Source of the DNA: a virus
Strand: one strand, 5' to 3'
DNA length: 22,641 nt
Virus record (IMG/VR): IMGVR_UViG_3300008110_000554
Location: 1-22,641 of that record
The position numbers and the translations under genes are program-made. Below the pieces are notes generated by a model that worked only from the letters and a program-made list of their open reading frames with translations, made no database searches and was not told where the DNA came from. Positions 3,704-21,836 of this stretch are shown here, piece after piece. Each line of letters starts with the position of its first letter. The stretch's first letter is position 1.

Positions 3704-4585
3704 TTAAACGTATACTTCTGTTTTGGAAGGATCATAGGTAAAATGCCAATCTTCATTAACAGATTTACCTTCATACCAAGACCATCCATATTTAACGCCA
3801 TTTTTCTTAATCCAATCTTGTACATTTTTAGGTTGAATATCAATAGCTTTACCCCAACCATGGTTTGAAGTTCCAGGGAATGCTGCCGCTACATTCTCGG
3901 TTTTTATTTTACGTCTTTTAGCTCCAGCTTTAGGAGAAGTATCATTATATGATCCACCAGTAGCTACATAATATTCCCAGTCAAATATAGCCGTTTGGGC
4001 TTCATATGTTCTGTAAGAAGAACCTAAAACAGGATTTAAACCTTCTTTTTTCATGTCTTCTACCATTCTTAAATATGCATCTGCAGCTTCAACTGCTAAT
4101 TTATTAATTCCTCCTACGCTTTTTAAAGCACTATCAGGAAGTCTTCCATTCCCACCTTCGGTACCTGCAGGTATGTTAACTGTAGGGGCAGTATCAACTT
4201 GGGCTTCTTCAGATTGGGCAGCAAATGAAATACTACTAGTTATGATATTGTCTATAGGGCCGGTTTTAGGGATTAATGTAGTAGTAACATTAGTTTCCCA
4301 ATCACCGCCTTGAATCTTATGATCTATTCCTGTCACAATAAAATCAGTTGTTTTAGTGTATCCAGGGGGTAAAAAACTAGTATCTATAGAAAGTTCATTG
4401 TAAATCTTAATTCCACTAATACCATCCATAGTAAATGAAATGTTAAAGGGGATAAAACCAATTGATCCAGCAGATTGTTTTTGTTTTCCTTCAGTATCTT
4501 TTTGTTTGCCAGAGACTAAGACTTTGAAGTATTCAGTTGCTACTTCTAAATTTTCATTTATTCTTGAATCTACAAAATGTGGCAT
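3704..4585 (-). CDS. hub-tail protein with C-terminal M15 (VanY/L-Ala-D-Glu type) peptidase
   Basis: 293 residues in two parts. Residues 1-131 are a structural domain shared at roughly 80% identity with the gene just upstream; motifs include SAGSIGFIPFNISFTMDGIS and GIDHKIQGGDWET, which resemble the C-terminal end of baseplate hub proteins. A Gly-rich linker (about 135-155) leads to an M15 peptidase domain (about 156-290) with SYRT at 190-193, a PGTSNHGWGKAIDI block giving the zinc ligands His242 and Asp249, and EDWHF giving Glu278 and His281. M15 enzymes cut peptidoglycan cross-link or stem peptides; fused to a hub piece this would open the wall during infection. Only 3 nt separate it from the upstream stop. 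Start ATG 4585-4583. Confidence 0.85.
   Translation of the reverse strand: MPHFVDSRINENLEVATEYFKVLVSGKQKDTEGKQKQSAGSIGFIPFNISFTMDGISGIKIYNELSIDTSFLPPGYTKTTDFIVTGIDHKIQGGDWETNVTTTLIPKTGPIDNIITSSISFAAQSEEAQVDTAPTVNIPAGTEGGNGRLPDSALKSVGGINKLAVEAADAYLRMVEDMKKEGLNPVLGSSYRTYEAQTAIFDWEYYVATGGSYNDTSPKAGAKRRKIKTENVAAAFPGTSNHGWGKAIDIQPKNVQDWIKKNGVKYGWSWYEGKSVNEDWHFTYDPSKTEVYV
4193..4585 (-). repeat. copy 2 of the duplicated hub-tail domain
   Basis: Encodes residues 1-131 of the M15 hub-tail protein. I counted about 23 differences in 131 residues against the copy at 5162-5554, with no gaps, from MPHFVDSRINENLEVATEYF through the SFAAQ.EEAQ segment. Similarity ends sharply where the catalytic domains begin. 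Confidence 0.9.
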
Positions 4586-4588
4586 AAT

Positions 4589-5554
4589 TTAAAAGCTTCC
4601 GTAAAGTTTTATAATTAATTCTTTAACTTGAGCTAAATATGCTATTCTATCTTTAAATGATTTATCAGGACTATTTGCAGATATAGCTTCTTGTTTCATA
4701 ATTTCATATACTTTTTGATAAGATTTATTATTCTTACTAAAAAGACTAACTGGATATCCCCATCGTTCAAAAGTAGCCATTGCTGCTAGCATTTCTTCGG
4801 CATTAGTAGCCTGGGCAATGAAAGGTTTTGCGATGCCATCAGTGTAACCACTTCCGGGTTGGAGTTCAGCATATAAATAAGTTAATTGACCTTCAAGTGT
4901 AGAATCAGTTCCTGGGGATACTTTTGCTAATTGGGTTCTTCTATTTCCTAGCCATTGAGCGATTCCAAAAGCGTTAGATGTTGGATTTACTGCTAGAGGA
5001 TTTAATTTTCCTCCAGATTCACCCATTATTGCTGCTACTATACCTGCAGCTTTCCATTTAGGGTATCCTTTTTGGTCTATAAAGAATCTTAAAGCTTTTT
5101 CTACATTATCTCCTCCAGTAAGTGGAGCAGTTGAACCAAGCGTAACTGGGGCAGAAATATTATCAGCTTGAGCTTCTTCGGTTTGAGCAGCAAATGAAAG
5201 GCTACTAGTTATAACATTATCTATAGGACCGGTTTTAGGAATTAAAGTTACGTTTATACTAGTTTCCCAATCACCACCTTGAATCTTATGATCTACACCT
5301 GTTACTATAAAGTCTGTAGTTTTTGTATATCCTGCAGGAAGAAAATTAGTATCTAAAGCTAATTCATTGTAAATTTTTATCCCACTTATACCATCCATAG
5401 TAAATGAGATATTGTATGGAATAAAACCTACAGAACCTGCTGATTGCTTTTGTCTGTTTTCAGCATCTCTTTGTTTGGAAGCAACTAAAGTTTTAAAATA
5501 TTCAGTTGCTACTTCTAAATTTTCGTTTATCCTTGAGTCTACAAAATGTGGCAT
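4589..5554 (-). CDS. hub-tail protein with C-terminal phage tail lysozyme domain
   Basis: 321 residues. Residues 1-131 are the same hub-tail domain as in the next gene downstream. After a linker (about 132-150), residues 151-290 form a lysozyme-like domain of the phage tail lysozyme type. KAAGIVAAIMGESGGKLNP contains the probable catalytic Glu179, followed by NAFGIAQWLGNRRTQL and LEGQLTYLYAELQ, then a conserved-looking FERWGYP. The final 30 residues are helical and extend beyond the domain. It would cut the glycan strands of peptidoglycan from the baseplate, complementing the peptide-cutting M15 enzyme encoded 3 nt downstream. The start ATG 5554-5552 is 8 nt after the hub-like gene's stop, so hub and hydrolases are probably made together. 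Confidence 0.83.
   Translation of the reverse strand: MPHFVDSRINENLEVATEYFKTLVASKQRDAENRQKQSAGSVGFIPYNISFTMDGISGIKIYNELALDTNFLPAGYTKTTDFIVTGVDHKIQGGDWETSINVTLIPKTGPIDNVITSSLSFAAQTEEAQADNISAPVTLGSTAPLTGGDNVEKALRFFIDQKGYPKWKAAGIVAAIMGESGGKLNPLAVNPTSNAFGIAQWLGNRRTQLAKVSPGTDSTLEGQLTYLYAELQPGSGYTDGIAKPFIAQATNAEEMLAAMATFERWGYPVSLFSKNNKSYQKVYEIMKQEAISANSPDKSFKDRIAYLAQVKELIIKLYGSF
5162..5554 (-). repeat. copy 1 of the duplicated hub-tail domain
   Basis: Encodes residues 1-131 of the tail-lysozyme hub protein, colinear with 4193-4585. Most changes are conservative and concentrated in residues 22-34 (a charged, probably exposed stretch) and 98-103. The block FTMDGISGIKIYNEL is identical in both. Confidence 0.9.
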
Positions 5555-14658: not shown

Positions 14659-15030
14659 TTAAAGAGCAGAAATATTATCAGGATTTACATTATATGATAA
14701 TACTCCTTCTACTTTTAATATAGCTTTGCGGATATCTTCCATTTTTGAACGGTCGAACCCGCTAGATGCAATCCATGGGTGACCATCTACTTTAATAGTC
14801 ATTATAGATTGGAATTTTTCTGTATCTTGCTCGCTATACTCCATTGGTTCTTTTACAGATGCTACTGTAACACCTGGGATTGAGCGGATATCGGAAAATA
14901 TTTCTTTTTGAGGGCGTTTCTTAATATTGGTAATGAGCATACCTACCATTTTGAACTTGTCTTGGTATTCCTCATTTAGTCGCTTGCTAAGCTCCTCTTT
15001 AACTAACGTACGTAAACTATCTAGTTTCAT
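14659..15030 (-). CDS. small protein of unknown function with a possible ferredoxin-like fold
   Basis: 123 residues, MKLDSLRTLVKEELSKRLNEE at the start (amphipathic helix), then KMVGMLITNIKKRPQKEIFSD, IRSIPGVTVASVKEP, a strand SIMTIKVDGHPW and a closing helix-strand EDIRKAILKVEGVLSYNV. The order strand-helix-strand...strand-helix-strand with I.xIPGV and I..VEGV turns suggests a ferredoxin/ACT-like small fold. I do not know the family. It lies between the T9SS-type secreted protein and the gp26-like gene and has a copy of the leader motif only 4 nt before its ATG (15035-15044), so it starts what may be a separate expression unit. Confidence 0.65.
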   Translation of the reverse strand: MKLDSLRTLVKEELSKRLNEEYQDKFKMVGMLITNIKKRPQKEIFSDIRSIPGVTVASVKEPMEYSEQDTEKFQSIMTIKVDGHPWIASSGFDRSKMEDIRKAILKVEGVLSYNVNPDNISAL

Positions 15031-15034
15031 ATGG

Positions 15035-15044
15035 TTATAAATAT
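15035..15044 (-). promoter_or_regulatory. TTATAAATAT leader motif before the 123-residue gene
   Basis: Minus-strand ATATTTATAA ending only 4 nt before the ATG at 15030. If it were a -10 element, the transcript would begin inside or at the start codon. Confidence 0.5.
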
Positions 15045-15048
15045 TGGC

Positions 15049-17013
15049 CTATCGAATAAGATTAACATTTCCGCTTATAACTTGGTCATTGTCTGTTTCT
15101 TTAAAACCAAATTGAATTTTATATGTGTACAATCCTACAGGACAAGGTGTATTGTTATATGTTCCATCCCAATATTCTACATAGTTATACGATTCATAAA
15201 TTAATTCTCCCCAACGATTATAAATTTCTAAATGAAAATCATATGGGTCAAATCCATTTGTAAATACAGGCTGAAAAACATTGTTATGTTCATTTCCATC
15301 TGGGGTAAAGGTATTTGGAATATAAAACAATAGTTCAGGGCAACGTGCTACTGTAATTGTAGTTTCTTGAATGGGGGAAGCACATCCATTTGAATAATGT
15401 ATTACCGATAAAGGAAACATTCCTGTGTTAGTGAATGCAATTGATATATCATCTTGTTGATACGTTGTACCTATAAACGTCCATTCATTATATCCAGGTA
15501 AGTTAGATAAAGCAGTAAATAAAGTTACTACTGAATCGCCTTCACAAATTTCATAAAATGGATTGTATGGAGAAATTGAATCAAGTGTTGGTTGAGGGTA
15601 TACTGTTACAGTAGTTGTTGTATCAAAAGTACATCCACTCAATGTATATTCATAATTAATAACATTTGTTCCTACTGCGGTTGATGGAAAAAATTCATTA
15701 CCTATAATACCCACACCACTAATGATTCCTCCAACAGGATTTACGTTTAAAATAACAAATTCATCGTATTCACAAAATGGTCCTATAGGATCAATTGTAG
15801 GTAAAATGTTTAAAATAAATAAATCAATAGTTACAGGTAATCCAGTACATCCATTAGCTTCTGGGATTACTTGGATAGCTCCTGGAATAAATCCTGCAGG
15901 GAATGAACTAAAATCTACTGTAACGATATTGGTTCCTTGTCCTGAAGTAATAGGAGCAACACTACTCCACAAGTAATTGTATCCTGCTATTGCAGGTACA
16001 TCATACATTTCGTATGAGCTTAAATAACATATTGTATCTAATCCATTAATAGGACCTAATGATGGAATTGGTGGGCCAGGAACAACTAACACAGTATCAG
16101 GCCCTAAACCAGTACCTCCATTACAAGTAGACCAACCAGCGTTACAAGTTGGGTAAGTTAAATGGCAAGTATATTGAGTTGGTCCATTTGGAGTTACATT
16201 AATAGTAGGACCTGTTCCAATTGGATTTGGGTTTCCAACTTGATACCATGTTAAAGTAGGAGTAACTACTGGTCCTGATGGTGTCCATCTCCAAGCATCG
16301 TTTGTAGCGATCCAAGCAGTTGAGTTTCTACCAGGTACAGCAATTCCTACAGTACCGGCAGCATTATGAATTCCTTGGGTTGCCGTTCCACCTTGCCATT
16401 GTAAACAAGGGGGTTTGTTTTGAATATGGTTTTCGATGTAGTTAGATGATTCATAAATTACAATATGGAATGTACCTTGATTAGAAGTACAACTAAACAT
16501 AGGCATGTTTATCCAACTTACTGTTAACTTTCTACAAGGTGCAACTCCACTTGTTTGATATCTAATTTGCCCTCCAATACCAGGATGCCAATCCTGCCAA
16601 GGACCCATAATACAATTTTTAGGTACTAAAAAATTATTCGTTGGAATAGGTTGGGAGGTAAATGTAGTAGGTTGTCCTGGGGAGAATGAAATCCAACCAT
16701 TTGAACCTACATAAAATTGGGTATATGTTTGTCCAAAGAAACAAAATGTAAACCCAATATTAAATGGACCCTGTTGAGTATCATCACCCATAAACAATTG
16801 AGTGCCTGTATTTGTTTGAGCAACATATGGTATGTTAGAAACACCGTAATTTGTTGTTTGATTGGGGTTTGTGCCTGTACCACATTGACTTAAATTTGCG
16901 GTTAAAGTTGTTGATCCTACACCACAAGGCAATATTTGATCAGGTCCTAAAGCAGGACAATATTGACCATATCCTACAAAGGCCAATAAAAGAAATATAA
17001 ATAGTTTTTTCAT
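15049..17013 (-). CDS. secreted protein with T9SS type B (gliding-motility-type) sorting domain
   Basis: 654 residues, unlike any virion protein around it. It has a Sec signal peptide (MKKLFIFLLLAFVGYGQ, cleavage near residue 16-18). A host-type N-terminal ectodomain (about 60-240) contains GFTFCFFGQTYTQFYVGSNG, IMGPWQDWHPG and IHNAAGTVGIAVPGRNS, segments I associate with surface proteins of Flavobacteriia. Ig/PKD-like repeats with paired cysteines follow (about 250-555). The C-terminal domain (about 558-654) has YIPNTFTPDGNEHNN, LEIYNRWGELIYES, YWDGTYN, PVGLYTYKI and the ending SGNVNLIR, the pattern of the T9SS type B sorting domain. It would be exported by Sec and then by the host's type IX system to the cell surface. 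A terminator separates it from the tail tube gene, so it behaves like a moron. Role unknown: superinfection exclusion, surface modification or host-cell adhesion are possibilities. Confidence 0.88.
   Translation of the reverse strand: MKKLFIFLLLAFVGYGQYCPALGPDQILPCGVGSTTLTANLSQCGTGTNPNQTTNYGVSNIPYVAQTNTGTQLFMGDDTQQGPFNIGFTFCFFGQTYTQFYVGSNGWISFSPGQPTTFTSQPIPTNNFLVPKNCIMGPWQDWHPGIGGQIRYQTSGVAPCRKLTVSWINMPMFSCTSNQGTFHIVIYESSNYIENHIQNKPPCLQWQGGTATQGIHNAAGTVGIAVPGRNSTAWIATNDAWRWTPSGPVVTPTLTWYQVGNPNPIGTGPTINVTPNGPTQYTCHLTYPTCNAGWSTCNGGTGLGPDTVLVVPGPPIPSLGPINGLDTICYLSSYEMYDVPAIAGYNYLWSSVAPITSGQGTNIVTVDFSSFPAGFIPGAIQVIPEANGCTGLPVTIDLFILNILPTIDPIGPFCEYDEFVILNVNPVGGIISGVGIIGNEFFPSTAVGTNVINYEYTLSGCTFDTTTTVTVYPQPTLDSISPYNPFYEICEGDSVVTLFTALSNLPGYNEWTFIGTTYQQDDISIAFTNTGMFPLSVIHYSNGCASPIQETTITVARCPELLFYIPNTFTPDGNEHNNVFQPVFTNGFDPYDFHLEIYNRWGELIYESYNYVEYWDGTYNNTPCPVGLYTYKIQFGFKETDNDQVISGNVNLIR
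15052..15342 (-). other. T9SS type B sorting domain (part of the secreted protein)
   Basis: Encodes about residues 558-654. The hallmark elements are PNTFTPDG (near 566), YNRWGE (near 598), YWDGTYN and a basic C-terminal end LIR. In Bacteroidota such domains are recognised by the type IX translocon and mark surface or secreted proteins. Confidence 0.85.
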
Positions 17014-17017
17014 AGAT

Positions 17018-17049
17018 CTAATATATTAAAAGAAAATAAAAGCCCCAAA
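17018..17049 (-). promoter_or_regulatory. possible promoter of the T9SS-type gene, overlapping the terminator
   Basis: TTTG (17049-17046), 20 nt, TATATTAG (17025-17018), one base off TAnnTTTG, ends 4 nt before the ATG. The TTTG lies in the terminator stem. If real, the mRNA would be nearly leaderless. Confidence 0.25.
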
Positions 17050-17062
17050 TTTCTTTGGAGCT
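17029..17062 (-). terminator. rho-independent terminator after the tail tube gene
   Basis: On the minus strand AGCTCCAAA, loop GAAA, TTTGGGGCT forms a 9-bp stem with one G-T pair (17062-17041). It is followed directly by a T-rich stretch, TTTATTTTCTTT (17040-17029). It lies 28 nt after the tail tube stop codon and before the T9SS-type gene, so it would end late structural transcription and insulate the inserted gene. Confidence 0.8.
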
Positions 17063-17089
17063 CTTATTTATTTATTGTTTAACCTAATA

Positions 17090-17578
17090 TTAGTAATTCA
17101 ATACGCAGTAGTCAGGTTGTACTTCAACAGTAAGTCCTACTATAGTTCCGTCATCATCCCAGCTATAATCGCCAAACCCAGCACTTGTAATAACAGCTCC
17201 TTTAATAATCCATTCAGAAACGATATCACCTACAGGTCCGATAACGTTGAACGTAATATCTTTCTTGTAGAAATCTGAGTAACCATCACGGCCTGTTACT
17301 GATTCGTGGCCTAAACGTACCCATTCCATTACTGCTTGGGCACCACTTGGAGTAATTGCATCATACAATGTAAATGAAATTGTATTCCAAATGGTTTTTC
17401 CTTTCACATAACGTTGAACGTTAATATGATTAAGTGGAACTGGGGTTTGTGATAGAGATATTGCGCTTACACCTTTGACCAAATATGATGGAACACCATC
17501 CATATAAAGGACAAAGCGGTTTGTTTGTTTAGGTTCAAACGCTGTAAAAAATATTTGATTTTGATCTAAAATTGCCAT
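17090..17578 (-). CDS. gp19: tail tube protein (gp19 family)
   Basis: 162 residues, close to T4 gp19 length (163). It starts MAILDQNQIFFTAFEPKQTN and shows the gp19 pattern: FVLYMDGVPSYLVKGVSAIS, PVPLNHINVQRYVKGKTIWN, a SFTLYDAITPSGAQAVMEWV helix and a GAVITSAGFGDYSWDDDG strand pair before the last beta strand. Hexameric rings of this protein stack to form the inner tube of the contractile tail, inside the sheath encoded by the two genes upstream. It is followed by a strong terminator, which fits an abundant structural product at the end of a transcription unit. Start ATG 17578-17576, leader motif at 17600-17609. Confidence 0.9.
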   Translation of the reverse strand: MAILDQNQIFFTAFEPKQTNRFVLYMDGVPSYLVKGVSAISLSQTPVPLNHINVQRYVKGKTIWNTISFTLYDAITPSGAQAVMEWVRLGHESVTGRDGYSDFYKKDITFNVIGPVGDIVSEWIIKGAVITSAGFGDYSWDDDGTIVGLTVEVQPDYCVLNY

Positions 17579-17625: not shown

Positions 17626-19350
17626 TTATCCGGGGAATTCAGCTCCTGTAGGCATTAAGATAAAATCTAACGAAATAAATTCAGCTGTACGTGTTGGTTG
17701 GATATAAATTTGACCGATTAATTGGTTTTGATCAATTACTGCTGGGCCATTGTTTGTATCATCCATAACAACTTTATAAGCATATAATCCTTGTTTTTGT
17801 TGGATTCCTTCTAAATATGGAGTAACTCTTGCGATAAATGAATTTCTGGTTGTGATTGTATTTTGTTCAAACACTACTGTATCTGCAATTTGACGAATAT
17901 AGGATTTTAATTCAATCATTAAACGACGTACATTTACACGATCTAAAGCAGATTGAGATTTTTGTAATGTTTTCTGACCGTATACTACTACACCTTGTTG
18001 AGGTAATGTTGCAATAGGGTTAATATTATTACTGTATAGCGTGTCACGATTACCTTGTGTCAATTTCAATTCAGCTTGAAGAACTGTACTTAATCCACCG
18101 CGGTTAATACCTGCTGGGGCAAACCAAGGGGCAGATACTTTATCGTTAAATGCATATACACCCGGAATTACTGTTGAAGCTGGTACCCATACTTGTTTTC
18201 CTGTTCCTGGATCGATAATACGAACCCAAGGGAAATAAGTTGCAGCATATGAAGTATCACGAGTTTGAGCTTGTATTGTAGCACCTCCTACTGTTGTTCC
18301 GTATACTCCTAAATCCATTACATACATGCTATCACCTCTAGCAATTGTATTATTGATGATGTTTGTAACTTGAGCGGTATGAGTATCATTTAATAAACCA
18401 GGAGCAAATAATAAATTGAATTGATATGCTTCAGCATTACCCATCAATGCAATCATATTATTATAACTAGCACCAATTAATCCTTGAGTGTTAGTTGAAA
18501 TTTTATCATATAAATTGATAGTAGTATTTGCATTTCCTGTAGCACTTGTAAATGAACCACCTGCTGAACCACTACCATTTAATGGAATAGATGCTGTGTA
18601 AGCAGATACTGCAATACCATTTGAATCAAAATAGTTTGGAGTAGGGAAGTTAACTGTTTTAACACGAACATATTGGGACATATTTGGATAACTTCCAGAT
18701 AATTCCATTTGGTTCGTAGAAGAATTGTAGTTTAGTACTTGATCACCAATTACTTGAGAAATGTAACGGTTTGAGTTAGGATCAAGTGTTAAATTGTTCC
18801 ATGATTCTAGTACAGTTTTATTAGCTTCAGTGTCATTACCACGTCTAATTAATACATTAAATGTACCTGATCCAGTATTTGAATTTGTAATCTCCCAACG
18901 AACATTATCAAATGATCCTGAGGTTAAAGATCCAGAAGCTCCAAGCATATTTGAGCCTGAATTATTCATAGTTGTACCTTCAGAAATTGTTTCTAAAACA
19001 AATGAAGCAGAAGTTGCATTTAAGTAATTAGAAATTGTAGTACTTTGAGCTGAAGACCAGTTAGCTGATTCAGTTACTACACGAGCAACTAGTAATGAAG
19101 TTCCTCCGTAATTAAAGTAATTATAAGCAGCAATTGAAGTTAAATAAGAATAAGATTGGCCACCACTAATAAAAGTATCTCCAAATTTTGTTACAAAATC
19201 TGAATATGAGGTTACTAAGGTAGGAGTTTCAATTGGACCTTTAACTGTTGGGCCTATAATAGCGGCACCAGCTTGAACAGGTTGTCCAGTCAAATAAGTA
19301 TTATCTATTTCGCTAATTGCTACTCCAGGGGAAACTGTAAAATTTGCCAT
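17626..19350 (-). CDS. gp18: tail sheath protein, copy 2 (gp18 family)
   Basis: 574 residues of the contractile sheath family. The N-terminal part has SPGVAISEID, AGAAIIGPTVKGPIETPTLV and TSYSDFVTKFGDTF. The C-terminal core has GINRGGLSTVLQAELKLTQG, YGQKTLQKSQSALDRVNVRR, LMIELKSYIRQIADTVVFEQ and IGQIYIQPTRTAEFISLDF. The middle (about 100-280) is variable and Ser/Thr/Asn-rich, where the sheath's protruding domains lie. The protein would polymerise around the gp19 tube and contract on infection. It follows another complete sheath gene by 46 nt and precedes the tube gene by 47 nt. Start ATG 19350-19348, leader motif at 19363-19372. Confidence 0.92.
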   Translation of the reverse strand: MANFTVSPGVAISEIDNTYLTGQPVQAGAAIIGPTVKGPIETPTLVTSYSDFVTKFGDTFISGGQSYSYLTSIAAYNYFNYGGTSLLVARVVTESANWSSAQSTTISNYLNATSASFVLETISEGTTMNNSGSNMLGASGSLTSGSFDNVRWEITNSNTGSGTFNVLIRRGNDTEANKTVLESWNNLTLDPNSNRYISQVIGDQVLNYNSSTNQMELSGSYPNMSQYVRVKTVNFPTPNYFDSNGIAVSAYTASIPLNGSGSAGGSFTSATGNANTTINLYDKISTNTQGLIGASYNNMIALMGNAEAYQFNLLFAPGLLNDTHTAQVTNIINNTIARGDSMYVMDLGVYGTTVGGATIQAQTRDTSYAATYFPWVRIIDPGTGKQVWVPASTVIPGVYAFNDKVSAPWFAPAGINRGGLSTVLQAELKLTQGNRDTLYSNNINPIATLPQQGVVVYGQKTLQKSQSALDRVNVRRLMIELKSYIRQIADTVVFEQNTITTRNSFIARVTPYLEGIQQKQGLYAYKVVMDDTNNGPAVIDQNQLIGQIYIQPTRTAEFISLDFILMPTGAEFPG

Positions 19351-19396: not shown

Positions 19397-21169
19397 TTAA
19401 GAAGGAAATGTTGCACCAGTAGGTAATATATTGAAATCAAGTATAATAAATTCAGCTGTTCTTGTTGGTTGTAAATAAATTTGACCAATTAATTGGTTTT
19501 GATCTACAACACTAGGAGGATTATTTGTTTCATCCATTATAACTCTAAATGAAGTTAAGCCTTGTTGTTGTTGAACTAAAGATAAATAAGGATTAACTAA
19601 AGATAAAAAGTTATTTCGTGTGATTTCGTTATTTTGTTCAAATACAAATGTATCTGCTACTTGAGAAATATAGTTTTTAAGTTCAATTAATAAACGACGT
19701 ACATTAACTCGATCTAAAGCAGTAGTTCTTTTTTGGAGCGTTTTTTGTCCAAATACTGTTATTGCAGACCCGTTAGCAGTAGCAACATTTGCAATTGGGT
19801 TTACATTGTTTTTATAAAGTAAATCTCTATTTCCTTGGGTTAATACACGTTCTGTCTTAACAACAGATGTCATTATACCACGGTTAATGCCTGCAGGTGC
19901 AAACCAAGGATAAGCAATAGCATCATTTTGTGCGTATACTCTTGGAATCATGGTTGCTGTAGGAACCCAAACTAAATTAGAAGTATTTGGATCTACTGTA
20001 TATAACCAAGGCCAATAAGCAGCAGCATATGAAGTATCTTTTGTTTGTGCACTAGTAACTACTGGGTTGATATTAGATCCGTATCCTACTACATCGGTTA
20101 CTACCATAAAATCTCCTCTTTGTTGAGCTAAAGTAATCATTTGATTTACTACACTGTTATGTAAAGGGAAATTTGTTGGGTCAGCTATTAAACCTGGGGC
20201 TACTAATAAGTTATAGTTATAGGCATCTTTATTTGCTAATAAAGAAATAGATTCAGTGTATGCGTTAGCTGTTAAACCTTGGATATTAGTATTAGAAATA
20301 TTTTCATAATATGCACCTGGAGTACCAGTTGGGATAATATTTCCTTTTCCATCACCAAATACACCACTTTGAGTTACTGGGATAGATCCTGTATATTGAG
20401 ATTTAGGATTTCCAACATTATCAAAATAGTTTGGAGTAGTTTGGTTTACTTGTTTAACACGAATATAAGAAGATTGATTTGGGTAACTTCCAGACATTTG
20501 AAGATAATACTCTCCATTGTCTTGTTGAATAGTTTCTACTTGGTTTCCAATTACTTTTTCAATATAGTTTGAAGCAAATGGATCAAGTGAAAGAGGACCC
20601 CAAGTTTCTAGAATAGATTGTTGAACACTTGAATCATTTCCTTGACGTAGTACTAATGTAAAAGTTCCACTATTTGTATCAGGAGAAACAATTTGCCATC
20701 TGTAATTTTCTGAGGAACCAGAAAGTAATGTATCATTTGAGCCTGTAGGGCCAACACTATTCATAATAATACCTTCAGATAATGTTTCTAAAACAAAAAC
20801 ATTGGTATTATATGGTGCACCTGCGGGTTGTGCAGATGCAGAAATAAATGATGAAGTAGCAGGAGTCCAATCTGTTGTTGTACTTCCACTTACTACACGA
20901 GTAACTAATAAAGTATTTCCACCACCAGCAAAGTAATTATATGCTGTAATTGATGTTAAAAAAGTATAAGTGCTACTTCCACTAAGAAAAGTAGCACCAA
21001 ACTTATTTAAATAATCTGTATAGGATGTTACTAAAGTAGGGATACCTACTTTACCTTTTACGGTTGGTCCAATTATAGCAGCACCTGCTTGTACAGGTTG
21101 TTGAGTTACAAATGATTGATCGTTCTCTATTGCTAATACACCAGGTGACGAAATAACAGTTTCTGCCAT
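19397..21169 (-). CDS. gp18: tail sheath protein, copy 1 (gp18 family)
   Basis: 590 residues, a tandem paralogue of the next gene. Shared blocks are QPVQAGAAIIGPTVKG, PTLVTSY.D...KFG.TF, APGINRG, a TQGNRD.LY.NN.NPIA segment, GQKTLQK..ALDRVNVRRL and IYLQPTRTAEFIILDF. Conservation is strong at both ends (about 60% by eye over the first 85 residues and higher in the C-terminal core) but weak in residues 110-290, including indels, so the two sheath versions differ mainly in the exposed domain. Both copies are full length with intact C-terminal cores, so neither looks like a decaying copy. Start ATG 21169-21167, with the leader motif at 21183-21192. Confidence 0.92.
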   Translation of the reverse strand: MAETVISSPGVLAIENDQSFVTQQPVQAGAAIIGPTVKGKVGIPTLVTSYTDYLNKFGATFLSGSSTYTFLTSITAYNYFAGGGNTLLVTRVVSGSTTTDWTPATSSFISASAQPAGAPYNTNVFVLETLSEGIIMNSVGPTGSNDTLLSGSSENYRWQIVSPDTNSGTFTLVLRQGNDSSVQQSILETWGPLSLDPFASNYIEKVIGNQVETIQQDNGEYYLQMSGSYPNQSSYIRVKQVNQTTPNYFDNVGNPKSQYTGSIPVTQSGVFGDGKGNIIPTGTPGAYYENISNTNIQGLTANAYTESISLLANKDAYNYNLLVAPGLIADPTNFPLHNSVVNQMITLAQQRGDFMVVTDVVGYGSNINPVVTSAQTKDTSYAAAYWPWLYTVDPNTSNLVWVPTATMIPRVYAQNDAIAYPWFAPAGINRGIMTSVVKTERVLTQGNRDLLYKNNVNPIANVATANGSAITVFGQKTLQKRTTALDRVNVRRLLIELKNYISQVADTFVFEQNNEITRNNFLSLVNPYLSLVQQQQGLTSFRVIMDETNNPPSVVDQNQLIGQIYLQPTRTAEFIILDFNILPTGATFPS

Positions 21170-21182
21170 GTTTATATTTTAT

Positions 21183-21192
21183 TTATAAATAT
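21183..21192 (-). promoter_or_regulatory. TTATAAATAT leader motif before sheath copy 1
   Basis: Minus-strand ATATTTATAAATAAA, ending 13 nt before the ATG at 21169. This copy is palindromic and contains the T4 late octamer TATAAATA in the sense direction too (21187-21180). Confidence 0.6.
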
Positions 21193-21836
21193 TAATAAGT
21201 CCACAAATATCCATAAGCTGTTTTCTGTTTTTTTCTACAACATGATGCTATATTATCTCCTGGCTTAGAATTAAAATGTCTTTCAGCTTCATTAGCACTT
21301 TTCCAAGTTTTAATGAAATTTCCTCTAATATCATATTGACTAACAAATTTACCTGGTCGAGGGGTAAGATGAAAGGAAAAGTCTTGAAGAGGAGAATATG
21401 ACCATATAAATCCTCCAGCTAGCTTGGTATTCTTTTTTAGACATCCATCTATATCAACAGGGTATTTTTGTTTAGCTTCTTTTATACTATCCCATAAATG
21501 AACTAAATCCCCGTTTGTATTGTATTGGTATATTTTTTTACGTAGTTTTAATACTGTTTTTTTAATAGACTCAGGAGACTTAAATGAGGTACCTCCTCCT
21601 CCATTATTTTTATTTAAAACTACAAACCCCCACTGTTTAAATTGTTCTATCCAATAGCATTCTAAAGGTTTCCAATCTTTTGAGTTAATTGAAGGAATTT
21701 GATCTATTACTCCAAATTTTATTTGCTTACCATGTGTTAAATTATGACAATACTCTCTAGATTTGGGATTAACAGTTTTACCGATATAAACTTGATCAGA
21801 TGATATTTCTACTAGATATATGTAAGTGCATTTCAT
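21192..21836 (-). CDS. GIY-YIG homing endonuclease with NUMOD-like repeats
   Basis: 214 residues. The GIY-YIG domain (about 4-80) has TYIYLVE, VYIGKT, Arg27, the catalytic-type Glu59 in PLECYWIEQF and VLNKNNGGGG. Two NUMOD1-like DNA-binding repeats follow (about 102-147 and 165-214), each of the form Y..NG...  W.S..EA and a closing G(F/Y).W.Y: YQYNTNGDLVHLWDSIKEA and SQYDIRGNFIKTWKSANEA. Such free-standing enzymes (Seg type in T4) cut DNA of related phages lacking the gene and copy themselves and flanking markers by recombination. It is intact, sits between a small coiled-coil gene and the first sheath gene, and carries its own leader motif. Its stop codon shares bases with the motif of the next gene. 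Confidence 0.9.
   Translation of the reverse strand: MKCTYIYLVEISSDQVYIGKTVNPKSREYCHNLTHGKQIKFGVIDQIPSINSKDWKPLECYWIEQFKQWGFVVLNKNNGGGGTSFKSPESIKKTVLKLRKKIYQYNTNGDLVHLWDSIKEAKQKYPVDIDGCLKKNTKLAGGFIWSYSPLQDFSFHLTPRPGKFVSQYDIRGNFIKTWKSANEAERHFNSKPGDNIASCCRKKQKTAYGYLWTY

What the first reader, a model, noticed from the sequence alone, without database searches (positions are those of the whole stretch)
15049..17013. A T9SS-exported, host-type surface protein encoded inside a phage tail gene cluster
Seen: a signal peptide, a flavobacterial-style ectodomain with Ig/PKD-like repeats, and a complete type B sorting domain ending in NLIR, between tail tube and tail assembly genes and on the same strand. 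Known: such C-terminal domains direct Bacteroidota proteins through the type IX system to the surface. Inference: the protein leaves the cytoplasm, where virions assemble, so it is unlikely to be a virion part. It is more likely to act on the surface of the infected host, for example by masking receptors (superinfection exclusion) or changing adhesion or gliding. A lytic-type phage using the host's T9SS would be unusual; I do not know of a description.
Basis: partly seen in the sequence, partly recalled or inferred. Interest (0 to 1): 0.87.

Follow-up and report, generated by a model that had tools for sequence, protein, structure and literature searches.

The report
Phage-borne T9SS surface adhesin gene
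A group of T4-like phages of aquatic Bacteroidota carries, in one exact slot between two tail genes, a captured host surface-protein gene whose product bears both address labels for export through the host's type IX secretion system; it probably remodels the surface of the infected cell rather than forming part of the virus particle.

Summary
The minus-strand ORF 15049-17013 (654 aa) has a signal peptide with the Bacteroidota Q-rule cleavage residue, a host-type ectodomain, Ig/PKD modules and a type B T9SS sorting domain above curated cut-offs (TIGR04131, CHU_C). It lies between the tail tube gene and a probable tail terminator gene. It is not a chimera: 141 IMG/VR stretches encode relatives, and dozens of contigs share both junctions. 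A scan anchored on the tail terminator gene found the slot filled in about 55 of 79 contigs and cleanly empty in 24; the empty sites match the window with just the CDS missing. The nearest cultured relative (Flavobacterium phage immuto) also lacks it. So the gene is accessory, not needed to build a tail. All 47 family representatives keep the Q residue and the type B domain, and dN/dS is low. The phage copies form one clade nested among Bacteroidota surface proteins. Checked phage records have no PorP/SprF shuttle; seven bacteria checked have 5-19 each. Best reading: a host-exported, shuttle-anchored mini-adhesin on the infected cell. Superinfection exclusion is plausible but untested. Phage-encoded T9SS cargo has a published precedent (type A, Cryophage, PMC7468147).

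The parts
15049..17013 (-). T9SS cargo gene: signal peptide + host-type ectodomain + Ig/PKD modules + type B CTD, 654 aa
16966..17013 (-). signal peptide, residues 1-16, followed by invariant mature N-terminal Q17 (Q-rule)
   Evidence: Q17 invariant, 47 of 47; rule from PMC5837995
16075..16965 (-). cysteine-rich N-terminal ectodomain, residues 17-313, shared with Bacteroidota surface proteins; beta-rich; no convincing solved fold
15346..16074 (-). Ig/PKD-like modules, residues 314-556, similar to repeats of the GhpA grappling hook; some relatives carry SprB repeats
15049..15345 (-). type B T9SS C-terminal sorting domain, residues 557-654 (with stop codon)
   Evidence: nearest bacterial CTDs
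15045..17019 (-). inserted segment (about 1,975 bp) absent from empty-site relatives; the CDS and little else, with a 4-5 nt overlap of the flanks at the junction
17034..17069 (-). terminator-type hairpin after the tube gene, present in occupied and empty slots
   Evidence: (z -3.8)
15036..15044 (-). ATATTTATA element before the tail terminator gene; the same element precedes six other genes, mostly tail genes, but not the cargo gene
17090..17578 (-). tail tube protein (upstream border of the slot)
14659..15030 (-). tail terminator-like protein (downstream border of the slot)
   Evidence: weak matches

Best explanation
The gene is a phage accessory (moron-like) gene captured from a Bacteroidota surface adhesin. 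Its product is made in the infected cell, exported by Sec (Q-rule signal peptide), passed through the host's T9SS by its type B CTD, and anchored on the outer surface by a host PorP/SprF-like shuttle, because the phages checked encode none. The conserved cysteine-rich head is held out on an Ig/PKD stalk, as in a miniature SprB/GhpA-type adhesin. The most likely use is to alter the infected cell's surface so that competing phages, or released progeny, cannot use gliding/T9SS-dependent receptors: by masking the receptor or by occupying the shuttle that would display it. Supported by sequence: the export signals, their conservation, host origin, accessory status and repeated movement. Inferred: export and anchorage. 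Guessed: the superinfection-exclusion role (about 0.4 by itself).
For: TIGR04131 and CHU_C in 47 of 47 representatives; PorP/SprF PF11751 in 0 of 22 phage records but 5-19 per genome in 7 of 7 bacteria. Q17 and eleven head cysteines invariant. dN/dS about 0.04-0.2 in the ectodomain. Slot filled in about 55 and empty in 24 of 79 informative contigs found with the tail terminator as bait; precise empty site; nearest isolate empty. The same family lies outside the tail region in other phage contigs. Phage clade nested in Bacteroidota proteins. Ig modules like GhpA, a Bacteroidota adhesin with a terminal sorting domain; SprB repeats in 22 of 47. CTD exchanged independently of the ectodomain yet always type B, as expected if it must fit the host's shuttle (PMC12618676). 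T9SS/gliding mutations give phage resistance in F. columnare (PMC9233685).
Against: No expression, secretion or surface data exist. No anti-adsorption assay. No host is experimentally known for the window phage. The ectodomain has no solved structural match that would show what it binds. The cargo gene lacks the element that precedes the tail genes (0 of 51), so its timing is unknown. The ectodomain is conserved (69-99% identity), which is unusual for a receptor-masking protein in an arms race. Absence of PorP/SprF was tested mostly on incomplete records.
Confidence: 0.55

Rival explanations
1. Surface adhesin that changes adhesion, aggregation or gliding of the infected cell (for example particle attachment or clustering before lysis) rather than blocking other phages.
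For: Closest characterised relatives of the modules are adhesins: GhpA and SprB repeats. The head domain is strongly conserved, which fits a constant ligand better than a receptor arms race.
Against: No ligand or phenotype known; the benefit to a lytic-type phage is unclear.
Confidence: 0.25
2. Virion part: an Ig-rich tail or decoration protein, with the signal-like ends being incidental.
For: Sits in the tail gene cluster between tube and terminator; Ig domains are common on phage virions (searches list weak matches to virion proteins).
Against: Signal peptide, Q17 and type B CTD kept in 47 of 47; empty slot in close relatives with otherwise intact tail genes; same family outside the tail region in other phages; ectodomain is a Bacteroidota surface-protein domain.
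Confidence: 0.07
3. Host-benefit or passenger cargo: a captured surface protein that feeds or protects the host during a long infection, or a selfish hitch-hiker with no set role.
For: Accessory, repeatedly gained or lost, deletion remnant L130 and broken copy L031.
Against: Strong purifying selection, one intact copy per contig in most records and wide spread.
Confidence: 0.12
4. Chimeric contig joining host and phage DNA.
For: The gene is host-like and composition shifts slightly (GC about 0.36-0.38 in 15501-17500 against 0.32-0.33 around it).
Against: Both junctions recur in dozens of independent contigs with diverged sequence, and matching empty sites exist.
Confidence: 0.01

Closest known systems
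Cryophage T9SS cargo genes (Bellas et al. 2020, PMC7468147)
   Same: Phage-encoded proteins with a T9SS sorting domain; proposed to use the host secretion system; superinfection exclusion suggested
   Different: Those are type A domains on an endoglucanase, a glycoside hydrolase and a PA14 protein in highly variable genes; here a conserved type B adhesin-like family, with a fixed slot inside the tail module in one phage group and other locations elsewhere
SprB, gliding adhesin of Flavobacterium johnsoniae (type B CTD, SprF shuttle; PMC9143113, PMC12618676)
   Same: Signal peptide, type B CTD, repeat-built surface protein; SprB repeats in 22 of 47 relatives
   Different: Far smaller; no SprF gene nearby; the window protein itself has no SprB-repeat match; gliding role untested
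GhpA grappling hook protein of Aureispira (PDB 9flp and others)
   Same: Ig-module stalk and C-terminal sorting domain; only significant PDB profile match (1.6e-90)
   Different: 5,898 aa against 654 aa; the head domain is not matched
Phage superinfection-exclusion surface proteins such as T5 Llp (from memory)
   Same: Phage protein displayed at the host envelope that could block adsorption
   Different: Function not tested here; would use T9SS instead of lipoprotein export; no sequence relation examined
Q-rule secreted proteins of Porphyromonas gingivalis phages (PMC10367356)
   Same: Phage proteins adapted to Bacteroidota export
   Different: No T9SS sorting domain reported there

Membership tests
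T9SS type B cargo protein | Sec signal peptide | tested here: met
   K-K-hydrophobic N-terminus read by eye, Q17 invariant in 47 of 47; no SignalP run available
T9SS type B cargo protein | Type B CTD at the extreme C-terminus above curated cut-off | tested here: met
   TIGR04131 42.1 bits against 35; 47 of 47 members match
T9SS type B cargo protein | Cognate PorP/SprF-like shuttle available | tested here: inconclusive
   None in 22 phage records; 5-19 per genome in 7 Bacteroidota genomes carrying the ectodomain; actual host unknown
T9SS type B cargo protein | Secretion depends on T9SS | not testable with these tools
   needs experiment
SprB/GhpA-type adhesin | Ig or SprB repeat stalk | tested here: met
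   GhpA profile match, Foldseek top hits GhpA fragments though with low TM-scores, SprB PF13573 in 22 of 47 relatives
SprB/GhpA-type adhesin | Giant size and own shuttle gene | tested here: not met
   654 aa, no PF11751 in phage records
Cryophage-type (type A) T9SS cargo | Type A sorting domain | tested here: not met
   window matches type B only; 5 of 47 relatives also match the type A model TIGR04183
Phage moron / accessory gene | Present or absent at one site in otherwise similar phages | tested here: met
Phage moron / accessory gene | Own promoter and terminator | tested here: inconclusive
   hairpin upstream, shared with empty sites; no tail-type element before the gene (0 of 51); no terminator in the 18 nt after it
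Superinfection exclusion protein | Blocks adsorption or entry of further phages | not testable with these tools
   needs experiment
Virion structural protein | Required and conserved in the tail module | tested here: not met
   empty slot in 24 contigs and in phage immuto

The most novel reading that the evidence does not exclude
A widespread clade of aquatic Bacteroidota phages has domesticated a host T9SS type B adhesin as a fixed infection gene, and swaps its C-terminal sorting domain to fit the shuttle of each host, so that the infected cell's gliding/T9SS surface is taken over to exclude competing phages.
Probability: 0.3. Interest if true: 0.82.

Novelty: new variant of a known kind. Interest (0 to 1): 0.64.

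Why it matters
It suggests that export through a host-specific secretion machine is a stable, selected trait of a phage gene family, not a one-off variable island. It gives a concrete gene, a precise empty-site control and a mechanism that can be tested in Flavobacterium. If the CTD swapping follows host shuttles, the sorting domain could be used to predict hosts of uncultured phages. T9SS and gliding genes are known phage-resistance loci in Flavobacterium (PMC9233685), so a phage that supplies its own T9SS surface protein bears on how phages compete at that receptor layer.

Tried and rejected
Chimera: rejected. Virion part: made unlikely. Phage-encoded shuttle: not found (positive control). 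PHROG match for the protein: none. Fold of the N-terminal head by Foldseek (no match at E 0.001) and VIA-align (best Z 6.9 over about 75-85 residues, only an Ig-sized part): no informative match, not evidence of a new fold. NIDO-like nature of the head was considered from memory; no Pfam match supports it. Closest bacterial CTDs: no obvious PorP/SprF gene was recognised beside them by eye in the short stretches held, so no cognate shuttle could be named. Reading ATATTTATA as a T4-type late promoter is uncertain: on the coding strand it is the reverse complement of TATAAATA. Paper searches for type B phage cargo found nothing beyond Cryophage in the held open-access library.

Full report
CHECK OF THE OBSERVATION. 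The ORF at 15049-17013 is real, on the minus strand, 654 aa. Its last 90 residues match the type B sorting domain (TIGR04131, 6.9e-11; CHU_C, 5.6e-14), above both curated cut-offs; a PKD-like domain lies at 319-390. Upstream on the same strand are the tail tube (phrog_4542) and two sheath genes; downstream a tail-terminator-like gene (weak match, E 0.0049), a baseplate hub-like gene and a tape measure gene. UvsX-like and gp32-like genes show a T4-like phage. No integrase is seen, but the window is all that is held of this virus record (22.6 kb), so lifestyle is not settled.

IT IS A PHAGE GENE FAMILY. A scan of IMG/VR gave 141 stretches, all encoding relatives, 80 kept. In about 50 contigs the order sheath-sheath-tube-cargo-terminator-hub-tape measure is kept as far as the contig reaches. 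In about 28 others the relative lies in quite different surroundings, some in contigs of 100-170 kb, and in the 634 kb uncultured phage LR745206. CHU_C occurs once in most of the 22 records checked, twice in two contigs, and four and three times in the two huge phages.

THE SLOT TEST. To avoid circularity I searched with the tail terminator protein instead. Of 79 informative contigs, about 55 have a cargo gene in the slot and 24 have none, only 76-128 bp between tube and terminator; contigs may repeat the same virus population. Filled slots hold proteins of about 654, 733, 819 or 420-460 aa. Those whose ends were printed start with a signal-peptide-like stretch and close with a sorting-domain-like end, apart from L130, a deletion remnant, and L031, a frame-broken copy. 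Against empty-site relatives the window's flanks join with 4-5 nt overlap; the extra segment is 15045-17019, the CDS and little else. Contigs with empty slots, up to 95 kb, have no CHU_C elsewhere in the DNA held. The nearest cultured phage, Flavobacterium phage immuto, has about 50-56% identical sheath and tube proteins, an empty slot of about 109 bp and no CHU_C match. A tail can therefore be built without this gene.

CONTROL SIGNALS. A strong hairpin followed by T-rich sequence ends the tube gene (z -3.8) and is present in most filled (48 of 51 distinct) and empty (16 of 17 distinct) slots. The element ATATTTATA occurs 7 times on the coding strand, against 1.66 expected on both strands together, 4-22 nt before genes that are mostly tail genes. 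It precedes the terminator gene in 51 of 51 filled and 17 of 17 empty slots but never the cargo gene (0 of 51). I read this as a sign that the cargo gene may be timed differently from the tail genes. This is inference.

THE PROTEIN. Across 47 representatives the mature N-terminal Q, eleven cysteines of the head, and the CTD are kept. The Q-rule is specific to Bacteroidota signal peptidase I substrates (PMC5837995). Pairwise dN/dS is about 0.04-0.2 in the head and 0.16-0.36 in the stalk (computed). AlphaFold gives an all-beta multi-domain model, mean pLDDT 82, pTM 0.44; the head alone reaches pLDDT 88 and pTM 0.83 but has no solved match at E 0.001. The profile's only significant PDB match is GhpA, the Aureispira grappling hook (1.6e-90); Foldseek ranks GhpA fragments first with low TM-scores. 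SprB repeats appear in 22 of 47 relatives, not in the window protein itself.

ORIGIN. The head is found in many Bacteroidota MAGs, in proteins mostly 400-2,600 aa long, up to 67% identical. In the tree the 48 phage rows form one group (98% SH-aLRT) among 78 bacterial rows. The nearest bacterial copies L158, L159, L160 and L166 sit among ordinary chromosomal-type genes by eye. The label 'tail slot' needs about 7 changes on the phage tree, so the gene has moved in or out of the slot several times. The CTD has been exchanged separately: L019 is 90% identical to the window in the head but 58% in the CTD, L062 86% and 97%. The window's CTD is closest (up to 60%) to those of genomes in one Bacteroidota order, 115 of 299 with E at most 1e-25. 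That order includes the genome of a MAG titled Flavobacteriales (L186 = G040), so the host is probably of that kind. This is inference.

MECHANISM. Type B cargo depends on a PorP/SprF-like shuttle for secretion and anchorage, and shuttles accept foreign cargo if the CTDs are similar (PMC12618676, PMC9143113). The 22 phage records have none, while the seven bacterial genomes checked have 5-19. The phage protein would thus borrow a host shuttle. In F. columnare, gld and spr mutations give phage resistance (PMC9233685) and the receptor is thought to lie in the gliding machinery (PMC7345892), so a phage-made T9SS surface protein is well placed to mask or displace a receptor. That last step is a guess; the adhesin rival is next.

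VERDICT. Observation confirmed; interpretation partly supported. General precedent exists (PMC7468147). What is new here is the type B class, the conserved single family spread over many phages, the exact removable slot inside the tail module, and independent CTD exchange.

Noticed in passing
window 3704-4585 and 4589-5554: Two tandem genes with nearly the same N-terminal ~110 aa but different wall-cutting C-termini: VanY carboxypeptidase (PF02557) and phage tail lysozyme (PF18013). Looks like one baseplate part with two alternative lytic tips.
   Followed up: no
window 17626-19350 and 19397-21169: Two tandem tail sheath genes, about 57% alike, kept as a pair in many relatives.
   Followed up: no
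window 21192-21836: GIY-YIG/NUMOD1 homing-type endonuclease gene before the second sheath gene, found at this place only in the identical contig L027 among the loci.
   Followed up: no
window, coding strand, 11295, 13594, 15036, 17601, 19364, 21184, 21841: ATATTTATA element before genes, mostly tail genes; enriched over chance; possible phage regulatory signal.
   Followed up: partly
PP395634.1 (L261): Microcystis phage Mel-JY01 has tail tube 60% and sheath 51% identical to this Bacteroidota-type phage, closer than other cyanophages; its stated host may deserve a check.
   Followed up: no
L002 (LR745206.1) and L003 (LR756502.1): Two uncultured huge phages (635 and 642 kb) carry four and three CHU_C domains, in proteins up to 1,670 aa.
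   Followed up: partly
L047, L065: A second, larger T9SS cargo protein (about 1,350-1,550 aa) lies near the family member in these phage contigs.
   Followed up: no
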